A DNA stretch of 64,000 bases from Thysanoteuthis rhombus (Eukaryota > Mollusca > Cephalopoda > Oegopsida > Thysanoteuthidae), in assembly GCA_963457665.1 (NCBI GenBank), contig OY735225.1, positions 3,883,586 through 3,947,585 on the forward strand, given 5' to 3'. Below are positions 7,437 through 64,000 of this stretch, one piece after another. How positions within the stretch are numbered: the first letter of the stretch is position 1; the number at the start of each line of letters is the position of its first letter. Under the pieces are notes generated by a model. The model saw only the letters and a program-made list of their open reading frames with translations, was not told where the DNA came from and made no database searches. Both the position numbers and the translations under genes were made by a program.

Positions 7437-7500
7437 AAATTACCGCTGGCCCAATAGAACAATAGGTAGAATATGACGAGCATTTCTTTCTACATGTGTG

Positions 7501-7512
7501 CATGGTGTAATG
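7501..7512 (+). other. A-box-like motif in the spacer, present in each unit
   Basis: CATGGTGTAATG (CATGGTGTAATGG in other units) matches the D-arm/A-box of eukaryotic tRNA-Gln genes as I remember it. No matching anticodon arm or B box lies at the right distance, so at most this is a relic of a third tRNA gene. Confidence 0.2.
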
Positions 7513-7768
7513 ACCGCCTTCGTGCTATTAGTACATGAATGTGTTTACTGCAATGATGCCCGTCTTTGCTATCAATGTCTCCCTGACTCATATTGACGCA
7601 CCTATTACCGTGGATTTGGATGTTTTTTTCCTGTTCAATGTATGATAAATTCGTTTCTTCTTTTAATCCCTCCATCACAACTTGCTGACTTTATCAAGTG
7701 TACGGTGCGCTGATTTGTCAAGATTTCTTTCTTTGGCTTGATTTCTTTCGAGCAAAACATGCTGAGAA

Positions 7769-7841
7769 GTCCCTGTAGCGCAGGGGATAGCGCGCTGGAC
7801 TTCTAATCCAGAGGCCGTGGGTTCGAATCCCACCAGGGATG
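7769..7841 (+). tRNA. tRNA-Arg-TCT: tRNA-Arg (anticodon TCT), unit 1
   Basis: This tRNA decodes AGA (and AGG by wobble). It is 73 nt with no intron and no encoded CCA. The acceptor GTCCCTG pairs with CAGGGAT and the discriminator is G. D stem GCGC/GCGC, anticodon stem CTGGA/TCCAG, loop CTTCTAA with TCT at 7802-7804, T stem GTGGG/CCCAC. The D loop AGGGGATA offers A20, which with C35 is a known ArgRS identity determinant in most organisms. The B box GGTTCGAATCC is perfect; the A box TAGCGCAGGGG is slightly off consensus. In every unit the anticodon is at gene start +33 to +35. Confidence 0.97.
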
Positions 7842-7847
7842 TTTGTA

Positions 7848-7851
7848 TTTT
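7848..7851 (+). terminator. Pol III terminator of tRNA-Arg (unit 1)
   Basis: First T4 run after the gene, 7 nt past its 3' end, preceded by a weak T3. It is found at the same offset in the other units. Confidence 0.75.
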
Positions 7852-7960
7852 ATTTCATTCATCCTATTCAAGCTATAGCAGCCAGCAAACGTTTAGATTC
7901 GCTCACTGGAGGAATGCTTTGCTAGCTTTCGTTTGGAGGTAAATAAGCAACAATAGTCAG

Positions 7961-7972
7961 TATATATAATAT
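7961..7972 (+). promoter_or_regulatory. TATA box upstream of tRNA-Ile (unit 1)
   Basis: TATATATAATAT covers -32 to -21 relative to the mature Ile 5' end, where TFIIIB/TBP contacts Pol III genes. It is conserved in the units. The Arg gene has no equivalent. Confidence 0.6.
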
Positions 7973-7992
7973 GGGAGCGAAACGAAAGTGTC

Positions 7993-8066
7993 GGCCGGTT
8001 AGCTCAGTTGGTTAGAGCGTCGTGCTAATAACGCGAATGTCGTGGGTTCGAGCCCCATACTGGCCA
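7993..8066 (+). tRNA. tRNA-Ile-AAT: tRNA-Ile (anticodon AAT), unit 1
   Basis: This tRNA decodes AUU, AUC and AUA after A34 is edited to inosine, as in other eukaryotes. It is 74 nt without intron. The acceptor GGCCGGT pairs with ACTGGCC (one G-U) and the discriminator is A. D arm GCTC-AGTTGGTTA-GAGC, anticodon stem TCGTG/CGCGA, loop CTAATAA with AAT at 8027-8029, T stem GTGGG/CCCAT. The A box TAGCTCAGTTGG and B box GGTTCGAGCCC are perfect. A TATA box lies upstream. In every unit the anticodon is at gene start +34 to +36. Confidence 0.97.
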
Positions 8067-8073
8067 AGTGATC

Positions 8074-8077
8074 TTTT
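8074..8077 (+). terminator. Pol III terminator of tRNA-Ile (unit 1)
   Basis: T4 run 8 nt after the gene's 3' end, in the context ATCTTTT, conserved across the array. Confidence 0.75.
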
Positions 8078-8482
8078 CGAATCGAGTAGACATTATTGGC
8101 TCCCTCCAATGCTCAATGATTAGGTTCGATTGAAAAAATCAATTAAAAAAAAATTACCGCTGGCCCAATAGAACAATAGGTAGAATATGACGAGCATTTC
8201 TTTCTACATGTGTGCATGGTGTAATGGCCGCCTTCGTGCTATTAGTACATGAATGTGTTTACTGCAATGATGCCCGTCTTTGCTATCAATGTCTCCCTGA
8301 CTCATATTGACGCACCTATTACCGTGGATTTGGATGTTTTTTTCCTGTTCAATGTATAATAAATTCGTTTCTTCTTTTAATCCGTCCATCACAACTTGCT
8401 GACTTTATCAAGTGTACGGTGCGCTGATTTGTCAAGATTTCTTTCTTTGGCTTGATTTCTTTCGAGCAAAACACGCTGAGAA

Positions 8483-8555
8483 GTCCCTGTAGCGCAGGGG
8501 ATAGCGCGCTGGACTTCTAATCCAGAGGCCGTGGGTTCGAATCCCACCAGGGATG
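8483..8555 (+). tRNA. tRNA-Arg-TCT: tRNA-Arg (TCT), unit 2
   Basis: Consensus. Confidence 0.95.
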
Positions 8556-8706
8556 TTTGTATTTTATTTCATTCATCCTATTCAAGCTATAGCAGCCAGC
8601 AAACGTTTAGATTCGCTCACTGGAGGAATGCTTTGCTAGCTTTCGTTTGGAGGTAAATAAGCAACAATAGTCAGTATATATAATATGGGAGCGAAACAAA
8701 AGTGTC

Positions 8707-8780
8707 AGCCGGTTAGCTCAGTTGGTTAGAGCGTCGTGCTAATAACGCGAATGTCGTGGGTTCGAGCCCCATACTGGCCA
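8707..8780 (+). tRNA. tRNA-Ile-AAT: tRNA-Ile (AAT), unit 2, G1A variant
   Basis: A replaces G at position 1, leaving A1 opposite C72. Confidence 0.85.
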
Positions 8781-9189
8781 AGTGATCTTTTGGAATCGAG
8801 TATTGGCTCCCTCCAATGCTCAATGATTAGGTTCGATTGAAAAAATCAATTAAAAAAAAATTACCGCTGGCCCAATAGAACAATAGGTAGAATATGACGA
8901 GCATTTCTTTCTACATGTGTGCATGGTGTAATGGCCGCCTTCGTGCTATTAGTACATGAATGTGTTTACTGCAATGATGCCCGTCTTTGCTATCAATGTC
9001 TCCCTGACTCATATTGACGCACCTATTACCGTGGATTTGGATGTTTTTTTCCTGTTCAATGTATAATAAATTCGTTTCTTCTTTTAATCCCTCCATCACA
9101 ACTTGCTGACTTTATCAAGTGTACGGTGCGCTGATTTGTCAAGATTTCTTTCTTTGGCTTGATTTCTTTCGAGCAAAACACGCTGAGAA

Positions 9190-9262
9190 GTCCCTGTAGC
9201 GCAGGGGATAGCGCGCTGGACTTCTAATCCAGAGGCCGTGGGTTCGAATCCCACCAGGGATG
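9190..9262 (+). tRNA. tRNA-Arg-TCT: tRNA-Arg (TCT), unit 3
   Basis: Consensus. Confidence 0.95.
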
Positions 9263-9413
9263 TTTGTATTTTATTTCATTCATCCTATTCAAGCTATAGC
9301 AGCCAGCAAACGTTTAGATTCGCTCACTGGAGGAATGCTTTGCTAGCTTTCCTTTGGAGGTAAATAAGCAACAATAGTCAGTATATATAATATGGGAGCG
9401 AAACAAAAGTGTC

Positions 9414-9487
9414 AGCCGGTTAGCTCAGTTGGTTAGAGCGTCGTGCTAATAACGCGAATGTCGTGGGTTCGAGCCCCATACTGGCCA
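9414..9487 (+). tRNA. tRNA-Ile-AAT: tRNA-Ile (AAT), unit 3, G1A variant
   Basis: A1 opposite C72. Confidence 0.85.
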
Positions 9488-9896
9488 AGTGATCTTTTGG
9501 AATCGAGTATTGGCTCCCTCCAATGCTCAATGATTAGGTTCGATTGAAAAAATCAATTAAAAAAAAATTACCGCTGGCCCAATAGAACAATAGGTAGAAT
9601 ATGACGAGCATTTCTTTCTACATGTGTGCATGGTGTAATGGCCGCCTTCGTGCTATTAGTACATGAATGTGTTTACTGCAATGATGCCCGTCTTTGCTAT
9701 CAATGTCTCCCTGACTCATATTGACGCACCTATTACCGTGGATTTGGATGTTTTTTACCTGTTCAATGTATGATAAATTCGTTTCTTCTTTTAATCCGTC
9801 CATCACAACTTGCTGACTTTATCAAGTGTACGGTGCGCTGATTTGTCAAGATTTCTTTCTTTGGCTTGATTTCTTTCGAGCAAAACACGCTGAGAA

Positions 9897-9969
9897 GTCC
9901 CTGTAGCGCAGGGGATAGCGCGCTGGACTTCTAATCCAGAGGCCGTGGGTTCGAATCCCACCAGGGATG
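9897..9969 (+). tRNA. tRNA-Arg-TCT: tRNA-Arg (TCT), unit 4
   Basis: Consensus. Confidence 0.95.
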
Positions 9970-10120
9970 TTTGTATTTTATTTCATTCATCCTATTCAAG
10001 CTATAGCAGCCAGCAAACGTTTAGATTCGCTCACTGGAGGAATGCTTTGCTAGCTTTCGTTTGGAGGTAAATAAGCAACAATAGTCAGTATATATAATAT
10101 GGGAGCGAAACAAAAGTGTC

Positions 10121-10194
10121 AGCCGGTTAGCTCAGTTGGTTAGAGCGTCGTGCTAATAACGCGAATGTCGTGGGTTCGAGCCCCATACTGGCCA
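10121..10194 (+). tRNA. tRNA-Ile-AAT: tRNA-Ile (AAT), unit 4, G1A variant
   Basis: A1 opposite C72. Confidence 0.85.
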
Positions 10195-10603
10195 AGTGAT
10201 CTTTTGGAATCGAGTATTGGCTCCCTCCAATGCTCAATGATTAGGTTCGATTGAAAAAATCAATTAAAAAAAAATTACCGCTGGCCCAATAGAACAATAG
10301 GTAGAATATGACGAGCATTTCTTTCTACATGTGTGCATGGTGTAATGGCCGCCTTCGTGCTATTAGTACATGAATGTGTTTACTGCAATGATGCCCGTCT
10401 TTGCTATCAATGTCTCCCTGACTCATATTGACGCACCTATTACCGTGGATTTGGATGTTTTTTTCCTGTTCAATGTATGATAAATTCGTTTCTTCTTTTA
10501 ATCCCTCCATCACAACTTGCTGACTTTATCAAGTGTACGGTGCGCTGATTTGTCAAGATTTCTTTCTTTGGCTTGATTTCTTTCGAGCAAAACTCGCTGA
10601 GAA

Positions 10604-10676
10604 GTCCCTGTAGCGCAGGGGATAGCGCGCTGGACTTCTAATCCAGAGGCCGTGGGTTCGAATCCCACCAGGGATG
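10604..10676 (+). tRNA. tRNA-Arg-TCT: tRNA-Arg (TCT), unit 5
   Basis: Consensus; followed by the 9-nt spacer deletion. Confidence 0.95.
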
Positions 10677-10818
10677 TTTGTATTTTATTTCATTCAAGCT
10701 ATAGCAGCCAGCGAACATTTAGATTCGCTCACTGGAGGAATGCTTTGCTAGCTTTCCTTTGGAGGTAAATAAGCAACAATAGTCAGTATATATAATATGG
10801 GAGCGAAACGAAAGTGTC

Positions 10819-10892
10819 GGCCGGTTAGCTCAGTTGGTTAGAGCGTCGTGCTAATAACGCGAATGTCGTGGGTTCGAGCCCCATACTGGCCA
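10819..10892 (+). tRNA. tRNA-Ile-AAT: tRNA-Ile (AAT), unit 5
   Basis: Consensus; only 142 nt from the Arg gene. Confidence 0.95.
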
Positions 10893-11301
10893 AGTGATCT
10901 TTTGGAATCGAGTATTGGCTCCCTCCAATGCTCAATGATTAGGTTCGATTGAAAAAATCAATTAAAAAAAAATTACCGCTGGCCCAATAGAACAATAGGT
11001 AGAATATGACGAGCATTTCTTTCTACATGTGTGCATGGTGTAATGGCCGCCTTCGTGCTATTAGTACATGAATGTGTTTACTGCGATGATGGCCGTCTTT
11101 GCTATCAATGTCTCCCTGACTCATATTGACGCACCTATTACCGTGGATTTGGATGTTTTTTTCCTGTTCAATGTATGATAAATTCGTTTCTTCTTTTAAT
11201 CCCTCCATCACAACTTGCTGACTTTATCAAGTGTACGGTGCGCTGACTTGTCAAGATTTCTTTCTTTGGCTTGATTTCTTTCGAGCAAAACACGCTGAGA
11301 A

Positions 11302-11374
11302 GTCCCTGTAGCGCAGGGGATAGCGCGCTGGACTTCTAATCCAGAGGCCGTGGGTTCGAATCCCACCAGGGATG
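11302..11374 (+). tRNA. tRNA-Arg-TCT: tRNA-Arg (TCT), unit 6
   Basis: Consensus. Confidence 0.95.
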
Positions 11375-11525
11375 TTTGTATTTTATTTCATTCATCCTAT
11401 TCAAGCTATAGCAGCCAGCAAACGTTTAGATTCGCTCACTGGAGGAATGCTTTGCTAGCTTTCGTTTGGAGGTAAATAAGCAACAATAGTCAGTATATAT
11501 AATATGGGAGCGAAACAAAAGTGTC

Positions 11526-11599
11526 AGCCGGTTAGCTCAGTTGGTTAGAGCGTCGTGCTAATAACGCGAATGTCGTGGGTTCGAGCCCCATACTGGCCA
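11526..11599 (+). tRNA. tRNA-Ile-AAT: tRNA-Ile (AAT), unit 6, G1A variant
   Basis: A1 opposite C72. Confidence 0.85.
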
Positions 11600-12008
11600 A
11601 GTGATCTTTTGGAATCGAGTATTGGCTCCCTCCAATGCTCAATGATTAGGTTCGATTGAAAAAATCAATTAAAAAAAAATTACCGCTGGCCCAATAGAAC
11701 AATAGGTAGAATATGACGAGCATTTCTTTCTACATGTGTGCATGGTGTAATGGCCGCCTTCGTGCTATTAGTACATGAATGTGTTTACTGCAATGATGCC
11801 CGTCTTTGCTATCAATGTCTCCCTGACTCATATTGACGCACCTATTACCGTGGATTTGGATGTTTTTTACCTGTTCAATGTATGATAAATTCGTTTCTTC
11901 TTTTAATCCCTCCATCACAACTTGCTGACTTTATCAAGTGTACGGTGCGCTGATTTGTCAAGATTTCTTTCTTTGGCCTGATTTCTTTCGAGCAAAACAC
12001 GCTGAGAA

Positions 12009-12081
12009 GTCCCTGTAGCGCAGGGGATAGCGCGCTGGACTTCTAATCCAGAGGCCGTGGGTTCGAATCCCACCAGGGATG
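12009..12081 (+). tRNA. tRNA-Arg-TCT: tRNA-Arg (TCT), unit 7
   Basis: Consensus. Confidence 0.95.
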
Positions 12082-12232
12082 TTTGTATTTTATTTCATTC
12101 ATCCTATTCAAGCTATAGCAGCCAGCAAACGTTTAGATTCGCTCACTGGAGGAATGCTTTGCTAGCTTTCGTTTGGAGGTAAATAAGCAACAATAGTCAG
12201 TATATATAATATGGGAGCGAAACAAAAGTGTC

Positions 12233-12306
12233 AGCCGGTTAGCTCAGTTGGTTAGAGCGTCGTGCTAATAACGCGAATGTCGTGGGTTCGAGCCCCATAC
12301 TGGCCA
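12233..12306 (+). tRNA. tRNA-Ile-AAT: tRNA-Ile (AAT), unit 7, G1A variant
   Basis: A1 opposite C72. Confidence 0.85.
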
Positions 12307-12715
12307 AGTGATCTTTTGGAATCGAGTATTGGCTCCCTCCAATGCTCAATGATTAGGTTCGATTGAAAAAATCAATTAAAAAAAAATTACCGCTGGCCCA
12401 ATAGAACAATAGGTAGAATATGACGAGCATTTCTTTCTACATGTGTGCATGGTGTAATGGCCGCCTTCGTGCTATTAGTACATGAATGTGTTTACTGCAA
12501 TGATGCCCGTCTTTGCTATCAATGTCTCCCTGACTCATATTGACGCACCTATTACCGTGGATTTGGATGTTTTTTTCCTGTTCAATGTATAATAAATTCG
12601 TTTCTTCTTTTAATCCCTCCATCACAACTTGCTGACTTTATCAAGTGTACGGTGCGCTGATTTGTCAAGATTTCTTTCTTTGGCTTGATTTCTTTCGAGC
12701 AAAACACGCTGAGAA

Positions 12716-12788
12716 GTCCCTGTAGCGCAGGGGATAGCGCGCTGGACTTCTAATCCAGAGGCCGTGGGTTCGAATCCCACCAGGGATG
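12716..12788 (+). tRNA. tRNA-Arg-TCT: tRNA-Arg (TCT), unit 8
   Basis: Consensus. Confidence 0.95.
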
Positions 12789-12939
12789 TTTGTATTTTAT
12801 TTCATTCATCCTATTCAAGCTATAGCAGCCAGCAAACGTTTAGATTCGCTCACTGGAGGAATGCTTTGCTAGCTTTCCTTTGGAGGTAAATAAGCAACAA
12901 TAGTCAGTATATATAATATGGGAGCGAAACAAAAGTGTC

Positions 12940-13013
12940 AGCCGGTTAGCTCAGTTGGTTAGAGCGTCGTGCTAATAACGCGAATGTCGTGGGTTCGAGC
13001 CCCATACTGGCCA
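12940..13013 (+). tRNA. tRNA-Ile-AAT: tRNA-Ile (AAT), unit 8, G1A variant
   Basis: A1 opposite C72. Confidence 0.85.
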
Positions 13014-13422
13014 AGTGATCTTTTGGAATCGAGTATTGGCTCCCTCCAATGCTCAATGATTAGGTTCGATTGAAAAAATCAATTAAAAAAAAATTACCGC
13101 TGGCCCAATAGAACAATAGGTAGAATATGACGAGCATTTCTTTCTACATGTGTGCATGGTGTAATGGCCGCCTTCGTGCTATTAGTACATGACTGTGTTT
13201 ACTGCAATGATGCCCGTCTTTGCTATCAATGTCTCCCTGACTCATATTGAGGCACCTATTACCGTGGATTTGGATGTTTTTTACCTGTTCAATGTATGAT
13301 AAATTCGTTTCTTCTTTTAATCCGTCCATCACAACTTGCTGACTTTATCAAGTGTACGGTGCGCTGATTTGTCAAGATTTCTTTCTTTGGCTTGATTTCT
13401 TTCGAGCAAAACACGCTGAGAA

Positions 13423-13495
13423 GTCCCTGTAGCGCAGGGGATAGCGCGCTGGACTTCTAATCCAGAGGCCGTGGGTTCGAATCCCACCAGGGATG
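13423..13495 (+). tRNA. tRNA-Arg-TCT: tRNA-Arg (TCT), unit 9
   Basis: Consensus. Confidence 0.95.
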
Positions 13496-13646
13496 TTTGT
13501 ATTTTATTTCATTCATCCTATTCAAGCTATAGCAGCCAGCAAACGTTTAGATTCGCTCACTGGAGGAATGCTTTGCTAGCTTTCGTTTGGAGGTAAATAA
13601 GCAACAATAGTCAGTATATATAATATGGGAGCGAAACAAAAGTGTC

Positions 13647-13720
13647 AGCCGGTTAGCTCAGTTGGTTAGAGCGTCGTGCTAATAACGCGAATGTCGTGGG
13701 TTCGAGCCCCATACTGGCCA
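13647..13720 (+). tRNA. tRNA-Ile-AAT: tRNA-Ile (AAT), unit 9, G1A variant
   Basis: A1 opposite C72. Confidence 0.85.
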
Positions 13721-14129
13721 AGTGATCTTTTGGAATCGAGTATTGGCTCCCTCCAATGCTCAATGATTAGGTTCGATTGAAAAAATCAATTAAAAAAAAA
13801 TTACCGCTGGCCCAATAGAACAATAGGTAGAATATGACGAGCATTTCTTTCTACATGTGTGCATGGTGTAATGGCCGCCTTCGTGCTATTAGTACATGAA
13901 TGTGTTTACTGCAATGATGCCCGTCTTTGCTATCAATGTCTCCCTGACTCATATTGACGCACCTATTACCGTGGATTTGGATGTTTTTTTCCTGTTCAAT
14001 GTATGATAAATTCGTTTCTTCTTTTAATCCCTCCATCACAACTTGCTGACTTTATCAAGTGTACGGTGCGCTGATTTGTCAAGATTTCTTTCTTTGGCTT
14101 GATTTCTTTCGAGCAAAACTCGCTGAGAA

Positions 14130-14202
14130 GTCCCTCTAGCGCAGGGGATAGCGCGCTGGACTTCTAATCCAGAGGCCGTGGGTTCGAATCCCACCAGGGA
14201 TG
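14130..14202 (+). tRNA. tRNA-Arg-TCT: tRNA-Arg (TCT), unit 10, G7C variant
   Basis: C at 14136 replaces G7 and breaks the last acceptor pair with C66. Confidence 0.85.
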
Positions 14203-14344
14203 TTTGTATTTTATTTCATTCAAGCTATAGCAGCCAGCGAACATTTAGATTCGCTCACTGGAGGAATGCTTTGCTAGCTTTCCTTTGGAGGTAAATAAGC
14301 AACAATAGTCAGTATATATAATATGGGAGCGAAACGAAAGTGTC

Positions 14345-14418
14345 GGCCGGTTAGCTCAGTTGGTTAGAGCGTCGTGCTAATAACGCGAATGTCGTGGGTT
14401 CGAGCCCCATACTGGCCA
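14345..14418 (+). tRNA. tRNA-Ile-AAT: tRNA-Ile (AAT), unit 10
   Basis: Consensus; unit has the 9-nt spacer deletion. Confidence 0.95.
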
Positions 14419-14827
14419 AGTGATCTTTTGGAATCGAGTATTGGCTCCCTCCAATGCTCAATGATTAGGTTCGATTGAAAAAATCAATTAAAAAAAAATT
14501 ACCGCTGGCCCAATAGAACAATAGGTAGAATATGACGAGCATTTCTTTCTACATGTGTGCATGGTGTAATGGCCGCCTTCGTGCTATTAGTACATGAATG
14601 TGTTTACTGCGATGATGGCCGTCTTTGCTATCAATGTCTCCCTGACTCATATTGACGCACCTATTACCGTGGATTTGGATGTTTTTTTCCTGTTCAATGT
14701 ATGATAAATTCGTTTCTTCTTTTAATCCCTCCATCACAACTTGCTGACTTTATCAAGTGTACGGTGCGCTGACTTGTCAAGATTTCTTTCTTTGGCTTGA
14801 TTTCTTTCGAGCAAAACACGCTGAGAA

Positions 14828-14900
14828 GTCCCTGTAGCGCAGGGGATAGCGCGCTGGACATCTAATCCAGAGGCCGTGGGTTCGAATCCCACCAGGGATG
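14828..14900 (+). tRNA. tRNA-Arg-TCT: tRNA-Arg (TCT), unit 11, U33A variant
   Basis: A at 14860 replaces the near-invariant U33, giving loop CATCTAA. The anticodon U-turn would be impaired, so this copy is probably inactive in translation. Confidence 0.75.
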
Positions 14901-15051
14901 TTTGTATTTAATTTCATTCATCCTATTCAAGCTATAGCAGCCAGCGAACGTTTAGATTCGCTCACTGGAGGAATGCTTTGCTAGCTTTCGTTTGGAGGTA
15001 AATAAGCAACAATAGTCAGTATATATAATATGGGAGCGAAACAAAAGTGTC

Positions 15052-15125
15052 GGCCGGTTAGCTCAGTTGGTTAGAGCGTCGTGCTAATAACGCGAATGTC
15101 GTGGGTTCGAGCCCCATACTGGCCA
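15052..15125 (+). tRNA. tRNA-Ile-AAT: tRNA-Ile (AAT), unit 11
   Basis: Consensus. Confidence 0.95.
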
Positions 15126-15534
15126 AGTGATCTTTTGGAATCGAGTATTGGCTCCCTCCAATGCTCAATGATTAGGTTCGATTGAAAAAATCAAATAAAA
15201 AAAAATTACCGCTGGCCCAATAGAACAATAGGTAGAATATGACGAGTATTTCTTTCTACATGTGTGCATGGTGTAATGGCCGCCTTCGTGCTATTAGTAC
15301 ATGAATGTGTTTACTGCGATGATGGCCGTCTTTGCTATCAATGTCTCCCTGACTCATATTGACGCACCTATTACCGTGGATTTGGATGTTTTTTTCCTGT
15401 TCAATGTATGATAAATTCGTTTCTTCTTTTAATCCCTCCATCACAACTTGCTGACTTTATCAAGTGTACGGTGCGCTGATTTGTCAAGATTTCTTTCTTT
15501 GGCTTGATTTCTTTCGAGCCAAACACGCTGAGAA

Positions 15535-22129: not shown

Positions 22130-22203
22130 GGCCAGTTAGCTCAGTTGGTTAGAGCGTCGTGTTGATAACGCGAATGTCGTGGGTTCAAGCCCCATACTGG
22201 CCA
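22130..22203 (+). tRNA. tRNA-Ile-GAT: tRNA-Ile with anticodon GAT, unit 21
   Basis: Loop TTGATAA places GAT at 22164-22166. G34 replaces A34, so the tRNA would read AUC and AUU without inosine. The body is otherwise sound: G5A makes an A-U pair, C32U and G57A are mild, and A and B boxes are essentially intact. It carries the unit 17 haplotype with one added change. Confidence 0.85.
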
Positions 22204-37466: not shown

Positions 37467-37539
37467 GTCCCTGTAGCGCAGGGGATAGCGCGCTGGACTT
37501 ATAATCCAGAGGCCGTGGGTTCGAATCCCACCAGGGATG
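37467..37539 (+). tRNA. tRNA-Arg body with anticodon TAT, unit 43
   Basis: The loop CTTATAA places TAT at 37500-37502; C35 has become A. The rest matches the Arg consensus, including A20, both promoter boxes and all stems. The UAU anticodon reads the Ile codon AUA. C35 is a principal ArgRS determinant, so Arg charging should be weakened, and Ile charging is possible. The change also opens a 78-codon antisense frame that is not a gene. Confidence 0.85.
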
Positions 37540-42415: not shown

Positions 42416-42488
42416 GTCCCTGTAGCGCAGGGGATAGCGCGCTGGACTTATAATCCAGAGGCCGTGGGTTCGAATCCCACCAGGGATG
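42416..42488 (+). tRNA. tRNA-Arg body with anticodon TAT, unit 50
   Basis: Same C35A change as unit 43, with TAT at 42449-42451, exactly 4949 bp (seven units) downstream of it. No other departure from the Arg consensus. Confidence 0.85.
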
Positions 42489-53318: not shown

Positions 53319-53727
53319 AGTGATCTTTTGGAATCGAGTATTGGCTCCCTCCAATGCTCAATGATTAGGTTCGATTGAAAAAATCAATTAAAAAAAAATT
53401 ACCGCTGGCCCAATAGAACAATAGGTAGAATATGACGAGCATTTCTTTCTACATGTGTGCATGGTGTAATGGCCGCCTTCGTGCTATTAGTACATGAATG
53501 TGTTTACTGCGATGATGCCCGTCTTTGCTATCAATGTCTCCCTGACTCATATTGACGCACCTATTACCGTGGATTTGGATGTTTTTTTCCTGTTCAATGT
53601 ATGATAAATTCGTTTCTTCTTTTAATCCCTCCATCACAACTTGCTGACTTTATCAAGTGTACGGTGCGCTGATTTGTCAAGATTTCTTTCTTTGGCTTGA
53701 TTTCTTTCGAGCAAAACACGCTGAGAA

Positions 53728-53800
53728 GTCCCTGTAGCGCAGGGGATAGCGCGCTGGACTTCTAATCCAGAGGCCGTGGGTTCGAATCCCACCAGGGATG
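53728..53800 (+). tRNA. tRNA-Arg-TCT: tRNA-Arg (TCT), unit 66
   Basis: Consensus. Confidence 0.95.
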
Positions 53801-53951
53801 TTTGTATTTTATTTCATTCATCCTATTCAAGCTATAGCAGCCAGCGAACGTTTAGATTCGCTCACTGGAGGAATGCTTTGCTAGCTTTCCTTTGGAGGTA
53901 AATAAGCAACAATAGTCAGTATATATAATATGGGAGCGAAACGAAAGTGTC

Positions 53952-54025
53952 GGCCGGTTAGCTCAGTTGGTTAGAGCGTCGTGCTAATAACGCGAATGTC
54001 GTGGGTTCGAGCCCCATACTGGCCA
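53952..54025 (+). tRNA. tRNA-Ile-AAT: tRNA-Ile (AAT), unit 66
   Basis: Consensus. Confidence 0.95.
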
Positions 54026-54434
54026 AGTGATCTTTTGGAATCGAGTATTGGCTCCCTCCAATGCTCAATGATTAGGTTCGATTGAAAAAATCAATTAAAA
54101 AAAAATTACCGCTGGCTCAATAGAACAATAGGTAGAATATGACGAACATTTCTTTCTACATGTGTGCATGGTGTAATGGCCGCCTTCGTGCTATTAGTAC
54201 ATGAATGTGTTTACTGCGATGATGCCCGTCTTTGATATCAATGTCTCCCTGACTCATATTGACGCACCTATTACCGTGGATTTGGATGTTTTTTTCCTGT
54301 TCAATGTATGATAAATTCGTTTCTTCTTTTAATCCGTCCATCACAACTTGCTGACTTTATCAAGTGTACGGTGCGCTGATTTGTCAAGATTTCTTTCTTT
54401 GGCTTGATTTCTTTCGAGCAAAACACGCTGAGAA

Positions 54435-55921: not shown

Positions 55922-56072
55922 TTTGTATTTTATTTCATTCATCCTATTCAAGCTATAGCAGCCAGCGAACGTTTAGATTCGCTCACTGGAGGAATGCTTT
56001 GCTAGCTTTCCTTTGGAGGTAAATAAGCAACAATAGTCAGTATATATAATATGGGAGCGAAACGAAAGTGTC

Positions 56073-56146
56073 GGCCGGTTAGCTCAGTTGGTTAGAGCGT
56101 CGTGCTAATAACGCGAATGTCGTGGGTTCGAGCCCCATACTGGCCA
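56073..56146 (+). tRNA. tRNA-Ile-AAT: tRNA-Ile (AAT), unit 69
   Basis: Consensus. Confidence 0.95.
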
Positions 56147-56555
56147 AGTGATCTTTTGGAATCGAGTATTGGCTCCCTCCAATGCTCAATGATTAGGTTC
56201 GATTGAAAAAATCAATTAAAAAAAAATTACCGCTGGCCCAATAGAACAATAGGTAGAATATGACGAGCATTTCTTTCTACATGTGTGCATGGTGTAATGG
56301 CCGCCTTCGTGCTATTAGTACATGAATGTGTTTACTGCGATGATGCCCGTCTTTGCTATCAATGTCTCCCTGACTCATATTGACGCAGCTATTACCGTGG
56401 ATTTGGATGTTTTTTTCCTGTTCAATGTATGATAAATTCGTTTCTTCTTTTAATCCCTCCATCACAACTTGCTGACTTTATCAAGTGTACGGTGCGCTGA
56501 TTTGTCAAGATTTCTTTCTTTGGCTTGATTTCTTTCGAGCAAAACACGCTGAGAA

Positions 56556-56628
56556 GTCCCTGTAGCGCAGGGGATAGCGCGCTGGACTTCTAATCCAGAG
56601 GCCGTGGGTTCGAATCCCACCAGGGATG
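56556..56628 (+). tRNA. tRNA-Arg-TCT: tRNA-Arg (TCT), unit 70
   Basis: Consensus. Confidence 0.95.
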
Positions 56629-56770
56629 TTTGTATTTTATTTCATTCAAGCTATAGCAGCCAGCGAACGTTTAGATTCGCTCACTGGAGGAATGCTTTGC
56701 TAGCTTTCCTTTGGAGGTAAATAAGCAACAATAGTCAGTATATATAATATGGGAGCGAAACGAAAGTGTC

Positions 56771-56844
56771 GGCCGGTTAGCTCAGTTGGTTAGAGCGTCG
56801 TGCTAATAACGCGAATGTCGTGGGTTCGAGCCCCATACTGGCCA
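56771..56844 (+). tRNA. tRNA-Ile-AAT: tRNA-Ile (AAT), unit 70
   Basis: Consensus; unit has the 9-nt spacer deletion. Confidence 0.95.
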
Positions 56845-57253
56845 AGTGATCTTTTGGAATCGAGTATTGGCTCCCTCCAATGCTCAATGATTAGGTTCGA
56901 TTGAAAAAATCAATTAAAAAAAAATTACCGCTGGCCCAATAGAACAATAGGTAGAATATGACGAGCATTTCTTTCTACATGTGTGCATGGTGTAATGGCC
57001 GCCTTCGTGCTATTAGTACATGAATGTGTTTACTGCGATGATGCCCGTCTTTGCTATCAATGTCTCCCTGACTCATATTGACGCACCTATTACCGTGGAT
57101 TTGGATGTTTTTTACCTGTTCAATGTATGATAAATTCGTTTCTTCTTTTAATCCGTCCATCACAACTTGCTGACTTTATCAAGTGTACGGTGCGCTGATT
57201 TGTCAAGATTTCTTTCTTTGGCTCGATTTCTTTCGAGCAAAACACGCTGAGAA

Positions 57254-57326
57254 GTCCCTGTAGCGCAGGGGATAGCGCGCTGGACTTCTAATCCAGAGGC
57301 CGTGGGTTCGAATCCCACCAGGGATG
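57254..57326 (+). tRNA. tRNA-Arg-TCT: tRNA-Arg (TCT), unit 71
   Basis: Consensus. Confidence 0.95.
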
Positions 57327-57477
57327 TTTGTATTTTATTTCATTCATCCTATTCAAGCTATAGCAGCCAGCGAACGTTTAGATTCGCTCACTGGAGGAAT
57401 GCTTTGCTAGCTTTCCTTTGGAGGTAAATAAGCAACAATAGTCAGTATATATAATATGGGAGCGAAACGAAAGTGTC

Positions 57478-57551
57478 GGCCGGTTAGCTCAGTTGGTTAG
57501 AGCGTCGTGCTAATAACGCGAATGTCGTGGGTTCGAGCCCCATACTGGCCA
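57478..57551 (+). tRNA. tRNA-Ile-AAT: tRNA-Ile (AAT), unit 71
   Basis: Consensus. Confidence 0.95.
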
Positions 57552-57960
57552 AGTGATCTTTTGGAATCGAGTATTGGCTCCCTCCAATGCTCAATGATTA
57601 GGTTCGATTGAAAAAATCAATTAAAAAAAAATTACCGCTGGCCCAATAGAACAATAGGTAGAATATGACGAGCATTTCTTTCTACATGTGTGCATGGTGT
57701 AATGGCCGCCTTCGTGCTATTAGTACATGAATGTGTTTACTGCGATGATGCCCGTCTTTGCTATCAATGTCTCCCTGACTCATATTGACGCACCTATTAC
57801 CGTGGATTTGGATGTTTTTTTCCTGTTCAATGTATGATAAATTCGTTTCTTCTTTTAATCCCTCCATCACAACTTGCTGACTTTATCAAGTGTACGGTGC
57901 GCTGATTTGTCAAGATTTCTTTCTTTGGCTTGATTTCTTTCGAGCAAAACACGCTGAGAA

Positions 57961-58033
57961 GTCCCTGTAGCGCAGGGGATAGCGCGCTGGACTTCTAATC
58001 CAGAGGCCGTGGGTTCGAATCCCACCAGGGATG
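57961..58033 (+). tRNA. tRNA-Arg-TCT: tRNA-Arg (TCT), unit 72
   Basis: Consensus. Confidence 0.95.
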
Positions 58034-58184
58034 TTTGTATTTTATTTCATTCATCCTATTCAAGCTATAGCAGCCAGCGAACGTTTAGATTCGCTCACTG
58101 GAGGAATGCTTTGCTAGCTTTCGTTTGGAGGTAAATAAGCAACAATAGTCAGTATATATAATATGGGAGCGAAACGAAAGTGTC

Positions 58185-58258
58185 GGCCGGTTAGCTCAGT
58201 TGGTTAGAGCGTCGTGCTAATAACGCGAATGTCGTGGGTTCGAGCCCCATACTGGCCA
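58185..58258 (+). tRNA. tRNA-Ile-AAT: tRNA-Ile (AAT), unit 72
   Basis: Consensus. Confidence 0.95.
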
Positions 58259-58667
58259 AGTGATCTTTTGGAATCGAGTATTGGCTCCCTCCAATGCTCA
58301 ATGATTAGGTTCGATTGAAAAAATCAATTAAAAAAAAATTACCGCTGGCCCAATAGAACAATAGGTAGAATATGACGAACATTTCTTTCTACATGTGTGC
58401 ATGGTGTAATGGCCGCCTTCGTGCTATTAGTACATGAATGTGTTTACTGCGATGATGCCCGTCTTTGATATCAATGTCTCCCTGACTCATATTGACGCAC
58501 CTATTACCGTGGATTTGGATGTTTTTTTCCTGTTCAATGTATGATAAATTCGTTTCTTCTTTTAATCCCTCCATCACAACTTGCTGACTTTATCAAGTGT
58601 ACGGTGCGCTGATTTGTCAAGATTTCTTTCTTTGGCTTGATTTCTTTCGAGCAAAACACGCTGAGAA

Positions 58668-58740
58668 GTCCCTGTAGCGCAGGGGATAGCGCGCTGGACT
58701 TCTAATCCAGAGGCCGTGGGTTCGAATCCCACCAGGGATG
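58668..58740 (+). tRNA. tRNA-Arg-TCT: tRNA-Arg (TCT), unit 73
   Basis: Consensus. Confidence 0.95.
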
Positions 58741-58891
58741 TTTGTATTTTATTTCATTCATCCTATTCAAGCTATAGCAGCCAGCGAACGTTTAGATTCG
58801 CTCACTGGAGGAATGCTTTGCTAGCTTTCCTTTGGAGGTAAATAAGCAACAATAGTCAGTATATATAATATGGGAGCGAAACGAAAGTGTC

Positions 58892-58965
58892 GGCCGGTTA
58901 GCTCAGTTGGTTAGAGCGTCGTGCTAATAACGCGAATGTCGTGGGTTCGAGCCCCATACTGGCCA
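58892..58965 (+). tRNA. tRNA-Ile-AAT: tRNA-Ile (AAT), unit 73
   Basis: Consensus. Confidence 0.95.
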
Positions 58966-59374
58966 AGTGATCTTTTGGAATCGAGTATTGGCTCCCTCCA
59001 ATGCTCAATGATTAGGTTCGATTGAAAAAATCAATTAAAAAAAAATTACCGCTGGCCCAATAGAACAATAGGTAGAATATGACGAACATTTCTTTCTACA
59101 TGTGTGCATGGTGTAATGGCCGCCTTCGTGCTATTAGTACATGAATGTGTTTACTGCGATGATGCCCGTCTTTGCTATCAATGTCTCCCTGACTCATATT
59201 GACGCAGCTATTACCGTGGATTTGGATGTTTTTTTCCTGTTCAATGTATGATAAATTCGTTTCTTCTTTTAATCCCTCCATCACAACTTGCTGACTTTAT
59301 CAAGTGTACGGTGCGCTGATTTGTCAAGATTTCTTTCTTTGGCTTGATTTCTTTCGAGCAAAACACGCTGAGAA

Positions 59375-59447
59375 GTCCCTGTAGCGCAGGGGATAGCGCG
59401 CTGGACTTCTAATCCAGAGGCCGTGGGTTCGAATCCCACCAGGGATG
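59375..59447 (+). tRNA. tRNA-Arg-TCT: tRNA-Arg (TCT), unit 74
   Basis: Consensus. Confidence 0.95.
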
Positions 59448-59598
59448 TTTGTATTTTATTTCATTCATCCTATTCAAGCTATAGCAGCCAGCGAACGTTT
59501 AGATTCGCTCACTGGAGGAATGCTTTGCTAGCTTTCCTTTGGAGGTAAATAAGCAACAATAGTCAGTATATATAATATGGGAGCGAAACGAAAGTGTC

Positions 59599-59672
59599 GG
59601 CCGGTTAGCTCAGTTGGTTAGAGCGTCGTGCTAATAACGCGAATGTCGTGGGTTCGAGCCCCATACTGGCCA
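59599..59672 (+). tRNA. tRNA-Ile-AAT: tRNA-Ile (AAT), unit 74
   Basis: Consensus. Confidence 0.95.
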
Positions 59673-60081
59673 AGTGATCTTTTGGAATCGAGTATTGGCT
59701 CCCTCCAATGCTCAATGATTAGGTTCGATTGACAAAATCAATTAAAAAAAAATTACCGCTGGCTCAATAGAACAATAGGTAGAATATGACGAACATTTCT
59801 TTCTACATGTGTGCATGGTGTAATGGCCGCCTTCGTGCTATTAGTACATGAATGTGTTTACTGCGATGATGCCCGTCTTTGATATCAATGTCTCCCTGAC
59901 TCATATTGACGCACCTATTACCGTGGATTTGGATGTTTTTTTCCTGTTCAATGTATGATAAATTCGTTTCTTCTTTTAATCCCTCCATCACAACTTGCTG
60001 ACTTTATCAAGTGTACGGTGCGCTGATTTGTCAAGATTTCTTTCTTTGGCTTGATTTCTTTCGAGCAAAACACGCTGAGAA

Positions 60082-60154
60082 GTCCCTGTAGCGCAGGGGA
60101 TAGCGCGCTGGACTTCTAATCCAGAGGCCGTGGGTTCGAATCCCACCAGGGATG
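60082..60154 (+). tRNA. tRNA-Arg-TCT: tRNA-Arg (TCT), unit 75
   Basis: Consensus. Confidence 0.95.
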
Positions 60155-60305
60155 TTTGTATTTTATTTCATTCATCCTATTCAAGCTATAGCAGCCAGCG
60201 AACGTTTAGATTCGCTCACTGGAGGAATGCTTTGCTAGCTTTCCTTTGGAGGTAAATAAGCAACAATAGTCAGTATATATAATATGGGAGCGAAACAAAA
60301 GTGTC

Positions 60306-60379
60306 GGCCGGTTAGCTCAGTTGGTTAGAGCGTCGTGCTAATAACGCGAATGTCGTGGGTTCGAGCCCCATACTGGCCA
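60306..60379 (+). tRNA. tRNA-Ile-AAT: tRNA-Ile (AAT), unit 75
   Basis: Consensus. Confidence 0.95.
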
Positions 60380-60788
60380 AGTGATCTTTTGGAATCGAGT
60401 ATTGGCTCCCTCCAATGCTCAATGATTAGGTTCGATTGAAAAAATCAATTAAAAAAAAATTACCGCTGGCCCAATAGAACAATAGGTAGAATATGACGAA
60501 CATTTCTTTCTACATGTGTGCATGGTGTAATGGCCGCCTTCGTGCTATTAGTACATGAATGTGTTTACTGCGATGATGCCCGTCTTTGCTATCAATGTCT
60601 CCCTGACTCATATTGACGCACCTATTACCGTGGATTTGGATGTTTTTTACCTGTTCAATGTATGATAAATTCGTTTCTTCTTTTAATCCCTCCATCACAA
60701 CTTGCTGACTTTATCAAGTGTACGGTGCGCTGATTTGTCAAGATTTCTTTCTTTGGCTTGATTTCTTTCGAGCAAAACACGCTGAGAA

Positions 60789-60861
60789 GTCCCTGTAGCG
60801 CAGGGGATAGCGCGCTGGACTTCTAATCCAGAGGCCGTGGGTTCGAATCCCACCAGGGATG
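60789..60861 (+). tRNA. tRNA-Arg-TCT: tRNA-Arg (TCT), unit 76
   Basis: Consensus. Confidence 0.95.
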
Positions 60862-61012
60862 TTTGTATTTTATTTCATTCATCCTATTCAAGCTATAGCA
60901 GCCAGCCAACGTTTAGATTTGCTCACTGGAGGAATGCTTTGCTAGCTTTCCTTTGGAGGTAAATAAGCAACAATAGTCAGTATATATAATATGGGAGCGA
61001 AATGAAAGTGTC

Positions 61013-61086
61013 GGCCGGTTAGCTCAGTTGGTTAGAGCGTCGTGCTAATAACGCGAATGTCGTGGGTTCGAGCCCCATACTGGCCA
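61013..61086 (+). tRNA. tRNA-Ile-AAT: tRNA-Ile (AAT), unit 76
   Basis: Consensus. Confidence 0.95.
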
Positions 61087-61495
61087 AGTGATCTTTTGGA
61101 ATCGAGTATTGGCTCCCTCCAATGCTCAATGATTAGGTTCGATTGAAAAAATCAATTAAAAAAAAATTACCGCTGGCCCAATAGAACAATAGGTAGAATA
61201 TGACGAACATTTCTTTCTACATGTGTGCATGGTGTAATGGCCGCCTTCGTGCTATTAGTACATGAATGTGTTTACTGCGATGATGCCCGTCTTTGATATC
61301 AATGTCTCCCTGACTCATATTGACGCACCTATTACCGTGGATTTGGATGTTTTTTTCCTGTTCAATGTATGATAAATTCGTTTCTTCTTTTAATCCCTCC
61401 ATCACAACTTGCTGACTTTATCAAGTGTACGGTGCGCTGATTTGTCAAGATTTCTTTCTTTGGCTTGATTTCTTTCGAGCAAAACACGCTGAGAA

Positions 61496-61568
61496 GTCCC
61501 TGTAGCGCAGGGGATAGCGCGCTGGACTTCTAATCCAGAGGCCGTGGGTTCGAATCCCACCAGGGATG
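61496..61568 (+). tRNA. tRNA-Arg-TCT: tRNA-Arg (TCT), unit 77
   Basis: Consensus. Confidence 0.95.
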
Positions 61569-61718
61569 TTTGTATTTTATTTCATTCATCCTATTCAAGC
61601 TATAGCAGCCAGCGAACGTTTAGATTCGCTCACTGGAGGAATGCTTTGCTAGCTTTCCTTTGGAGGTAAATAAGCAACAATAGTCAGTATATATAATATG
61701 GAGCGAAACGAAAGTGTC

Positions 61719-61792
61719 GGCCGGTTAGCTCAGTTGGTTAGAGCGTCGTGCTAATAACGCGAATGTCGTGGGTTCGAGCCCCATACTGGCCA
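61719..61792 (+). tRNA. tRNA-Ile-AAT: tRNA-Ile (AAT), unit 77
   Basis: Consensus gene; one G is missing between its TATA box and its start. Confidence 0.95.
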
Positions 61793-62201
61793 AGTGATCT
61801 TTTGGAATCGAGTATTGGCTCCCTCCAATGCTCAATGATTAGGTTCGATTGAAAAAATCAATTAAAAAAAAATTACCGCTGGCCCAATAGAACAATAGGT
61901 AGAATATGACGAGCATTTCTTTCTACATGTGTGCATGGTGTAATGGCCGCCTTCGTGCTATTAGTACATGAATGTGTTTACTGCGATGATGCCCGTCTTT
62001 GCTATCAATGTCTCCCTGACTCATATTGACGCACCTATTACCGTGGATTTGGATGTTTTTTTCCTGTTCAATGTATGATAAATTCGTTTCTTCTTTTAAT
62101 CCCTCCATCACAACTTGCTGACTTTATCAAGTGTACGGTGCGCTGATTTGTCAAGATTTCTTTCTTTGGCTTGATTTCTTTCGAGCAAAACACGCTGAGA
62201 A

Positions 62202-62274
62202 GTCCCTGTAGCGCAGGGGATAGCGCGCTGGACTTCTAATCCAGAGGCCGTGGGTTCGAATCCCACCAGGGATG
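62202..62274 (+). tRNA. tRNA-Arg-TCT: tRNA-Arg (TCT), unit 78
   Basis: Consensus. Confidence 0.95.
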
Positions 62275-62425
62275 TTTGTATTTTATTTCATTCATCCTAT
62301 TCAAGCTATAGCAGCCAGCGAACGTTTAGATTCGTTCACTGGAGGAATGCTTTGCTAGCTTTCCTTTGGAGGTAAATAAGCAACAATAGTCAGTATATAT
62401 AATATGGGAGCGAAACGAAAGTGTC

Positions 62426-62499
62426 GGCCGGTTAGCTCAGTTGGTTAGAGCGTCGTGCTAATAACGCGAATGTCGTGGGTTCGAGCCCCATACTGGCCA
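62426..62499 (+). tRNA. tRNA-Ile-AAT: tRNA-Ile (AAT), unit 78
   Basis: Consensus. Confidence 0.95.
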
Positions 62500-62908
62500 A
62501 GTGATCTTTTGGAATCGAGTATTGGCTCCCTCCAATGCTCAATGATTAGGTTCGATTGAAAAAATCAATTAAAAAAAAATTACCGCTGGCCCAATAGAAC
62601 AATAGGTAGAATATGACGAGCATTTCTTTCTACATGTGTGCATGGTGTAATGGCCGCCTTCGTGCTATTAGTACATGAATGTGTTTACTGCGATGATGCC
62701 CGTCTTTGCTATCAATGTCTCCCTGACTCATATTGACGCAGCTATTACCGTGGATTTGGATGTTTTTTTCCTGTTCAATGTATGATAAATTCGTTTCTTC
62801 TTTTAATCCCTCCATCACAACTTGCTGACTTTATCAAGTGTACGATGCGCTGATTTGTCAAGATTTCTTTCTTTGGCTTGATTTCTTTCGAGCAAAACAC
62901 GCTGAGAA

Positions 62909-62981
62909 GTCCCTGTAGCGCAGGGGATAGCGCGCTTGACTTCTAATCCAGAGGCCGTGGGTTCGAATCCCACCAGGGATG
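62909..62981 (+). tRNA. tRNA-Arg-TCT: tRNA-Arg (TCT), unit 79, G29U
   Basis: T at 62937 replaces G29, breaking its anticodon-stem pair with C41. Confidence 0.8.
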
Positions 62982-63132
62982 TTTGTATTTTATTTCATTC
63001 ATCCTATTCAAGCTATAGCAGCCAGCGAACGTTTAGATTCGCTCACTGGAGGAATGCTTTGCTAGCTTTCCTTTGGAGGTAAATAAGCAACAATAGTCAG
63101 TATATATAATATGGGAGCGAAACGAAAGTGTC

Positions 63133-63206
63133 GGCCGGTTAGCTCAGTTGGTTAGAGCGTCGTGCTAATAACGCGAATGTCGTGGGTTCGAGCCCCATAC
63201 TGGCCA
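63133..63206 (+). tRNA. tRNA-Ile-AAT: tRNA-Ile (AAT), unit 79
   Basis: Consensus. Confidence 0.95.
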
Positions 63207-63615
63207 AGTGATCTTTTGGAATCGAGTATTGGCTCCCTCCAATGCTCAATGATTAGGTTCGATTGAAAAAATCAATTAAAAAAAAATTACCGCTGGCCCA
63301 ATAGAACAATAGGTAGAATATGACGAGCATTTCTTTCTACATGTGTGCATGGTGTAATGGCCGCCTTCGTGCTATTAGTACATGAATGTGTTTACTGCGA
63401 TGATGCCCGTCTTTGCTATCAATGTCTCCCTGACTCATATTGACGCACCTATTACCGTGGATTTGGATGTTTTTTACCTGTTCAATGTATGATAAATTCG
63501 TTTCTTCTTTTAATCCCTCCATCACAACTTGCTGACTTTATCAAGTGTACGGTGCGCTGATTTGTCAAGATTTCTTTCTTTGGCTTGATTTCTTTCGAGC
63601 AAAACACGCTGAGAA

Positions 63616-63688
63616 GTCCCTGTAGCGCAGGGGATAGCGCGCTGGACTTCTAATCCAGAGGCCGTGGGTTCGAATCCCACCAGGGATG
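63616..63688 (+). tRNA. tRNA-Arg-TCT: tRNA-Arg (TCT), unit 80
   Basis: Consensus. Confidence 0.95.
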
Positions 63689-63839
63689 TTTGTATTTTAT
63701 TTCATTCATCGTATTCAAGCTATAGCAGCCAGCGAACGTTTAGATTCGCTCACTGGAGGAATGCTTTGCTAGCTTTCCTTTGGAGGTAAATAAGCAACAA
63801 TAGTCAGTATATATAATATGGAAGCGAAACGAAAGTGTC

Positions 63840-63913
63840 GGCCGGTTAGCTCAGTTGGTTAGAGCGTCGTGCTAATAACGCGAATGTCGTGGGTTCGAGC
63901 CCCATACTGGCCA
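63840..63913 (+). tRNA. tRNA-Ile-AAT: tRNA-Ile (AAT), unit 80
   Basis: Consensus gene; surrounding spacer has several private bases and the AGACATT insertion. Confidence 0.95.
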
Positions 63914-64000
63914 AGTGATCTTTTGGAATCGACTAGACATTATTGGCTCCTTCCAATGCTCAATGATTAGGTTCGATTGAAAAAATCAATTAAAAAAAAA

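What the first reader, a model, noticed from the sequence alone, without database searches (positions are those of the whole stretch)
7437..64000. A 56-kb array of 80 two-gene tRNA units (160 tRNA genes)
Each 707-bp unit carries one tRNA-Arg(UCU) and one tRNA-Ile(AAU), always in the same order and strand. Tandem tRNA arrays are known, for example the 3.18-kb Xenopus tDNA repeat and the Entamoeba tRNA arrays, but I know of no described animal array built on this Arg/Ile pair at this copy number. It could supply extra AGA/AUU decoding in one tissue, feed tRNA fragments, or act as a chromatin boundary; the sequence does not decide which.
Basis: partly seen in the sequence, partly recalled or inferred. 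Interest (0 to 1): 0.85.

Follow-up and report, generated by a model that had tools for sequence, protein, structure and literature searches.

The report
Tandem array of Arg/Ile tRNA genes
A stretch of a eukaryotic chromosome carries at least 80 head-to-tail copies of a two-gene tRNA unit beside the decayed remains of what looks like an older array of the same gene pair; such arrays are a known kind, but this pair and its fossil neighbour may be new.

Summary
In detail: 160 tRNA genes in 80 head-to-tail units from 7437 to the window end, no right edge seen. Period is 707 bp in 72 of 79 spacings. Mean pairwise identity is 99.1%, 66 of 80 units are distinct and every 3-kb stretch is unique, so this is no simple assembly loop. 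Two Arg bodies read UAU and one Ile gene reads GAU.

Added here: (1) units differ by mosaic exchange, and gene columns are as polymorphic as spacer columns; (2) transitions concentrate at CpG, in genes and spacers alike, as germ-line methylation would leave; (3) at about 1100-2930, minus strand, lie relics of an older array of the same pair, spacers unrelated.

Best reading: a recently amplified, homogenised, promoter-complete tDNA array, probably methylated and mostly silent, like the clustered zebrafish tRNA genes. Expression could not be tested; the organism is unknown. Tandem tRNA arrays and large animal clusters of mixed pairs are published, so this is a new member of a known kind; the Arg/Ile pair and fossil neighbour are the new parts.

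The parts
7437..64000 (+). Tandem array: 80 units (707-bp consensus), each spacer(333)-Arg tRNA(73)-spacer(151)-Ile tRNA(74)-spacer(76); runs off the window end
53395..54101 (+). Unit 66, identical to the consensus (as is unit 59); Arg gene 53728-53800, Ile gene 53952-54025
37467..37539 (+). Arg-type tRNA body with UAU anticodon (unit 43)
42416..42488 (+). Arg-type tRNA body with UAU anticodon (unit 50, seven units later, other variants differ)
22130..22203 (+). Ile-type tRNA with GAU anticodon (unit 21)
2862..2930 (-). Decayed Ile-type tRNA relic (50/69 to the array gene)
2700..2769 (-). Decayed Arg-type tRNA relic (51/70); the only relic near the Rfam threshold (28.5 of 29 bits)
2520..2699 (-). 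Relic spacer between two Arg relics: resembles the after-Arg class, and its 3' part the after-Ile class, so an Ile gene was probably lost here
2454..2519 (-). Decayed Arg-type tRNA relic (51/66)
2290..2343 (-). Decayed Ile-type tRNA relic (44/54)
2151..2222 (-). Decayed Arg-type tRNA relic (51/72)
1965..2025 (-). Decayed Ile-type tRNA relic (53/61)
1788..1807 (-). Possible 5' stub of an Arg relic (17/19); score 27 is below the null, so it rests only on its place after an after-Ile spacer
1282..1358 (-). Decayed Ile-type tRNA relic (49/69), followed by sequence (1281-1100) resembling one after-Ile spacer

Best explanation
This is a tandem array of nuclear tRNA genes. SHOWN: 80 nearly identical units; mosaic sharing of variants between units, exact multi-unit duplications, and a more diverse left end; both consensus genes keep their stem pairs, internal promoter motifs and a T-run terminator; relics of an alternating array of the same pair lie nearby. 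INFERRED: the array grew recently from an Arg-Ile pair by unequal exchange, which with conversion still homogenises it; its CpGs are methylated in the germ line, across genes and spacers alike; and it is silent in most cells, with transcription by Pol III, if any, limited to a stage or tissue such as oocyte or early embryo. Arrays at this locus seem to be born and to decay, the relics being a previous generation. Confidence is for the array, homogenisation and methylation together; the restricted-expression step alone I put near 0.35. The inert-satellite rival shares all but that last step.
For: Array. Mosaic exchange: 95 of 561 pairs of informative columns fail the four-gamete test; units (39,40)=(41,42), (53,54)=(55,56), (59-61)=(66-68) exactly; neighbours more alike than in shuffled order (5.43 vs 6.30 differences, 0 of 2000 shuffles); diversity 8.12, 6.58, 3.81, 4.59 in successive blocks of 20 units. 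CpG: C>T/G>A at 20 of 66 CpG bases vs 18 of 238 other G/C bases (p 6e-6) and 5 of 65 GpC bases (p 0.0015); reverse changes at 2 of 92; polarity-free test 22 of 158 vs 24 of 549 (p 7e-5) and singletons 9 of 66 vs 10 of 238 (p 0.009). Genes and spacers alike: 8 of 25 vs 12 of 41 CpG bases. Promoter-complete: A box 80/80 in both genes, B box 78/80 Arg and 73/80 Ile, T-run 79/80 and 80/80, TATA-like element starting 32 or 31 bp before Ile in 80/80. Relics: seven matches of score 54-90, null maximum 46.5; spacer classes. Precedent: zebrafish tRNA genes in large clusters are nearly fully CpG-methylated (PMC11574265, passages).
Against: No methylation, Pol III or tRNA-seq data. CpG observed/expected of the array is 1.01 and of the left flank 0.71 (stretches of 1 kb 0.50 to 0.98), so the consensus is not depleted; youth or homogenisation must explain that. 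The CpG tests treat sites as independent, mostly take the majority base as ancestral, and are not corrected for several tests. tRNA columns are as polymorphic as spacer columns (19/147 vs 62/560, p 0.56), so nothing here shows selection for function. The Arabidopsis authors doubt that methylation is what silences their cluster (PMC12308677). The organism is unknown, so whether it methylates DNA is unknown.
Confidence: 0.6

Rival explanations
1. Inert satellite: the pair was amplified by chance by unequal exchange, is permanently heterochromatic, and never contributes tRNA.
For: tRNA columns are no more conserved than spacers; 26 of 80 Ile genes fail the pair/box test; the CpG-transition footprint covers the genes; most predicted zebrafish tRNA genes showed no accessibility in early embryos (PMC11574265, passages).
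Against: Both consensus genes, promoter motifs and terminators are canonical and 52 of 80 units are wholly intact. With 0.9% divergence there is little power to see selection.
Confidence: 0.35
2. Dosage array: constitutively active genes selected to raise AGA and AUU/AUC decoding in the whole organism or one tissue.
For: Copy number and intact consensus genes. Arg variants stay rare (9 types, the commonest in 2 copies).
Against: Arg variants are not significantly rarer than spacer variants (p 0.07) and the 60 bp before the gene are about as quiet (1.88 vs 1.71 changes per kb). CpG transitions in the genes argue against an unmethylated active state in the germ line. Gene number did not predict tRNA level in zebrafish embryos (PMC11574265).
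Confidence: 0.15
3. Assembly artefact: a short array inflated by the assembler.
For: Three exact multi-unit duplications exist; no reads were available.
Against: 66 of 80 units distinct; longest exact repeat 2809 bp and every 3-kb stretch unique; structured variant sharing.
Confidence: 0.04
4. The relics are tRNA-derived SINEs rather than an older array.
For: tRNA-derived SINEs are common in animals (recalled); one of two LINE-like copies lies among the relics.
Against: Seven same-strand relics of two tRNA types, alternating except at two gaps. All 3 pairs of after-Arg spacers are alike, and 3 of 6 pairs of after-Ile spacers, as in a decayed tandem array.
Confidence: 0.08

Closest known systems
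Large tDNA clusters of teleosts and Nematostella (PMC2888827)
   Same: Clusters of fifty or more members, mostly mixed pairs in zebrafish and Nematostella, nearly all parallel in Danio; a figure legend of a cluster of many Arg(TCT) and Thr genes (section read). Zebrafish clusters are near-fully CpG-methylated (PMC11574265, passages) and tRNAs present in eggs come from repetitive regions (PMC11417395, passages).
   Different: Here the partner is Ile(AAU), the unit is strictly regular at 707 bp, and relics of the same pair lie nearby. The legend names no species and does not say that the genes alternate; that paper calls a cluster any tDNAs under 1 kb apart and says tandem tRNA repeats were then reported only in Entamoeba.
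Xenopus oocyte-type tDNA tandem repeat
   Same: [quoted passage not shown] primary paper not read).
   Different: The Xenopus unit is 3.18 kb (as given in the finding) with, from recall, about eight tRNA genes; here 707 bp and two.
Arabidopsis SYY cluster (PMC12308677, passages)
   Same: Tandem units of a fixed tRNA set, heavily methylated, silent in most tissues.
   Different: Plant; Ser and Tyr genes; shown to be expressed in root cap cells. No expression data here.
Human 1q23.3 tRNA VNTR (PMC4041453, passages)
   Same: Tandem tRNA units, 98% alike, 9-43 per allele.
   Different: 7.3-kb GC-rich CTCF-binding unit with five genes on both strands.
Entamoeba tRNA arrays (PMC2652664, outline and abstract)
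   Same: Tandem multi-tRNA units, mostly uniform within an isolate.
   Different: There almost all tRNA genes are arrayed, with short tandem repeats between genes in E. histolytica and E. dispar; none found inside this array.

Membership tests
Tandem tDNA array (Xenopus / human VNTR / SYY kind) | Head-to-tail units each carrying the same complete tRNA genes | tested here: met
   80 units, 160 genes
Tandem tDNA array (Xenopus / human VNTR / SYY kind) | Concerted evolution of the units | tested here: met
   99.1% mean identity, mosaic variants, block duplications
Animal tDNA array | Host is an animal | not testable with these tools
   No genome held; one window pattern each gave 0 matches in viral and in prokaryotic contigs
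Methylated, conditionally expressed array (SYY / oocyte kind) | CpG methylation | tested here: inconclusive
   Indirect: CpG transition excess, but CpG o/e not depleted
Methylated, conditionally expressed array (SYY / oocyte kind) | Expression limited to a tissue or stage | not testable with these tools
   Needs tRNA-seq or Pol III ChIP
Inert satellite DNA | Unit makes no functional product | tested here: inconclusive
   Both consensus genes intact, expression unknown
Human 1q23.3-type tDNA VNTR | GC-rich unit | tested here: not met
   Array G+C 0.427
Human 1q23.3-type tDNA VNTR | CTCF site in the unit | not tested
   No CTCF motif search was made
Entamoeba-type arrays | Almost all tRNA genes of the genome are in arrays | not testable with these tools
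   Whole genome not available
Entamoeba histolytica/dispar-type arrays | Short tandem repeats between the genes | tested here: not met
   Tandem Repeats Finder (period up to 500, score 50) lists none in the array

The most novel reading that the evidence does not exclude
The Arg(UCU)-Ile(AAU) pair has been amplified at least twice at one locus, with unrelated spacers and on opposite strands, so the pair rather than the spacer is what selection or a copying bias keeps amplifying; the present array is a methylated reserve switched on in one developmental window to supply AGA and AUU/AUC decoding together.
Probability: 0.17. Interest if true: 0.72.

Novelty: new member of a known kind. Interest (0 to 1): 0.45.

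Why it matters
Some copies carry distinguishing variants (10 distinct Arg-type and 11 distinct Ile-type gene sequences), and what looks like a fossil array lies near the living one. The locus could therefore help test two open questions: whether clustered tRNA genes are ever used, and how such arrays are born, homogenised and lost. The CpG footprint gives a sequence-only prediction (germ-line methylation) that one nanopore or bisulfite run could check. The two UAU-anticodon Arg bodies, if expressed, would be a natural test of mistranslation.

Tried and rejected
Assembly loop: rejected as a simple explanation because every 3-kb stretch is unique. Other RNA genes in the spacer: a permissive Rfam scan of 1-9000, which holds units 1 and 2 whole, gave 8 matches: four array tRNAs, one relic (28.5 bits) and three sub-threshold matches, two antisense to Arg genes (E 0.47) and one at 5106-5177 (E 0.92). 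Selection on genes versus spacers: not detected. Protein genes in the left flank: Pfam gave 0 families for 5 frames that I picked out of 52 listed; at least two look to me like the end of a LINE reverse transcriptase, which is recall. Relics: nine places were compared; 2958-3019 (34.5) and 2560-2680 (20.5) fell below the null and were dropped. Homology of relic spacers to array spacers: none of 12 comparisons reached z 2, although three BLAST matches run 18 to 40 bases past the Arg gene's 3' end into T-rich sequence. Relatives: one window pattern in viral contigs and another in prokaryotic contigs, 0 matches. Ten paper searches; one search listed only mitochondrial papers (15 of 42 shown). The relics were compared only with this array's two tRNA genes, not with other tRNA types.
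Full report
OBSERVATION. ARAGORN lists 160 tRNA genes in the window, all on the + strand, from 7769 to 63913, strictly alternating between a 73-nt Arg-type and a 74-nt Ile-type gene. Rfam counts 160 matches above the gathering score; the 150 shown are all tRNA. The shared sequence begins at 7437 and the window ends at a unit junction, so 80 units is a minimum. Spacing is 707 bp in 72 of 79 intervals; 70 of 80 Arg-type genes are identical, and 53 of 80 Ile-type genes. Three anticodons differ from the finding: UAU in two Arg bodies, GAU in one Ile gene.

IS IT AN ASSEMBLY PRODUCT? Mean pairwise difference is 6.3 per 707 bp, gaps ignored (99.1% identity), and 66 of 80 units are distinct. The longest exact repeat is 2809 bp and every 3-kb stretch is unique. 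Reads well over 3 kb could therefore place units. No reads were available, so copy number itself is untested.

HOW IT EVOLVES. Of 561 pairs of informative columns (34 columns), 95 show all four combinations, so variants have been exchanged between units. Three exact block duplications (two of two units, one of three) point to recent unequal exchange. Adjacent units are more alike than in shuffled order (0 of 2000 shuffles as low), and the left 20 units are the most diverse of four blocks. The two UAU copies (units 43 and 50) share that variant but differ at others, as conversion or exchange would leave.

ARE THE GENES COMPETENT? By stem pairs plus recalled A-box and B-box motifs, 76 of 80 Arg-type, 54 of 80 Ile-type and 52 of 80 units are intact. 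A T-run follows 79 of 80 Arg and 80 of 80 Ile genes, and a TATA-like element starts 32 or 31 bp before all 80 Ile genes. Of the 26 failing Ile genes, 8 lose the first acceptor pair, 10 an anticodon-stem pair, 1 another acceptor pair, and 7 lack only the B-box motif. Polymorphic columns are as frequent in genes (19 of 147) as in spacers (62 of 560; one of these is the flank base in unit 1). So there is no sign of selection on single copies, though at this identity the test is weak. Arg variants stay at one or two copies, but this is not significant (p 0.07), and the 60 bp before the gene are about as quiet.

CpG FOOTPRINT. C>T or G>A variants occur at 20 of 66 CpG bases against 18 of 238 other G/C bases (p 6e-6) and 5 of 65 GpC bases (p 0.0015). 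Changes that create CpG are rare (2 of 92). A test without polarity (22 of 158 vs 24 of 549, p 7e-5) and one on singletons (9 of 66 vs 10 of 238, p 0.009) agree. The rate is about the same in genes and spacers (8 of 25, 12 of 41). This is what deamination of methylated CpG in the germ line would leave, with no protected island over the genes. Against it: the array's CpG observed/expected ratio is 1.01 and the left flank's 0.71, with 1-kb stretches of 0.50 to 0.98, so the consensus is not depleted. Youth of the array, or homogenisation toward CpG-bearing copies, could reconcile the two; neither was tested. Linked sites, majority-base polarity and several uncorrected tests weaken the p-values.

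A FOSSIL ARRAY. On the minus strand between 1282 and 2930 lie seven tRNA relics scoring 54 to 90, where 200 simulated flanks gave at most 46.5 (places found). Two further places fell below the null. From high to low coordinates the relics read Ile, Arg, Arg, Ile, Arg, Ile, and, beyond a LINE-like copy, Ile; so the alternation breaks twice. The three after-Arg spacers resemble each other (z 4.9 to 9.5, 0 of 300 shuffles each). After-Ile spacer 2861-2770 resembles 1957-1800 (z 5.7), 2289-2223 (z 3.0) and 1281-1100 (z 5.6); the other three after-Ile pairs gave z 1.0, 1.8 and 0.6, no clear support. Of the pairs across classes, only 2861-2770 against the Arg-to-Arg spacer stands out (z 2.9, 4 of 300); the 3' part of that spacer aligns with after-Ile sequence (no separate control), so an Ile gene was probably lost there. 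The stretch 1787-1715, after a possible Arg stub, matched spacers of both classes (z up to 4.0 and 3.8), and 3110-2931 showed weak after-Arg likeness (z up to 2.9). None of 12 comparisons linked relic spacers to the present array's spacers. I read this as an older, independent array of the same pair. SINE origin is less likely given the two alternating types and the matching spacers.

WHAT IS KNOWN. PMC2888827 (passages and one section) describes tDNA clusters of fifty or more members in Nematostella and teleosts, mixed pairs in zebrafish and clawed frog, and, in a legend that names no species, a cluster of many Arg(TCT) and Thr genes; R-T is among the most frequent pairs in Danio. PMC11574265 (passages) reports near-complete CpG methylation of tRNA genes in large zebrafish clusters and no correlation of gene number with tRNA level in embryos. 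PMC11417395 (passages) reports that tRNAs already present in eggs are encoded in repetitive regions. PMC11500080 (first of two parts) summarises that oocyte-specific tandem tRNA genes of Xenopus carry 5-formylcytosine and are activated at zygotic activation. PMC12308677 (passages) shows a methylated Arabidopsis cluster reactivated in root cap cells; its authors doubt that methylation is what silences it. PMC4041453 (passages) describes the human 1q23.3 tRNA VNTR; PMC2652664 (outline and abstract) the Entamoeba arrays. Ten searches of this open-access library, two of them with Arg and Ile terms, listed no Arg/Ile array. Listings were capped; subscription papers and supplements were not seen.

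VERDICT. The array is real and is a new member of a known kind. The most likely account is a young, homogenised, promoter-complete and probably germ-line-methylated tDNA array that is silent most of the time, near the remains of a predecessor. Whether it is ever transcribed is open. The organism, and that it is an animal, could not be established here.

Noticed in passing
1386-1714 (+) and 4125-4454 (-): Two copies of one repeat, 278 of 325 aligned bases identical; frames 1523-1705 + and 4134-4370 - read like the end of a LINE reverse transcriptase (recall; no Pfam match). One copy sits among the relic tRNA pieces.
   Followed up: partly
3110-3708: Imperfect direct repeats (45-74 nt, 60-80% alike to their reference copy) in an A+T-rich stretch beyond the relic array; origin unknown.
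   Followed up: no
8087-8093 and 63934-63940 (units 1 and 80; also units 13 and 21): A 7-bp TAGACAT stretch after the Ile gene is kept in 4 of 80 units, including the first and last seen, so the shorter form may be the derived one that spread.
   Followed up: partly
units 5, 10 and 70 (10271-10968, 13797-14494, 56223-56920): A shared 9-bp deletion after the Arg gene in three distant units, another sign of exchange along the array.
   Followed up: partly
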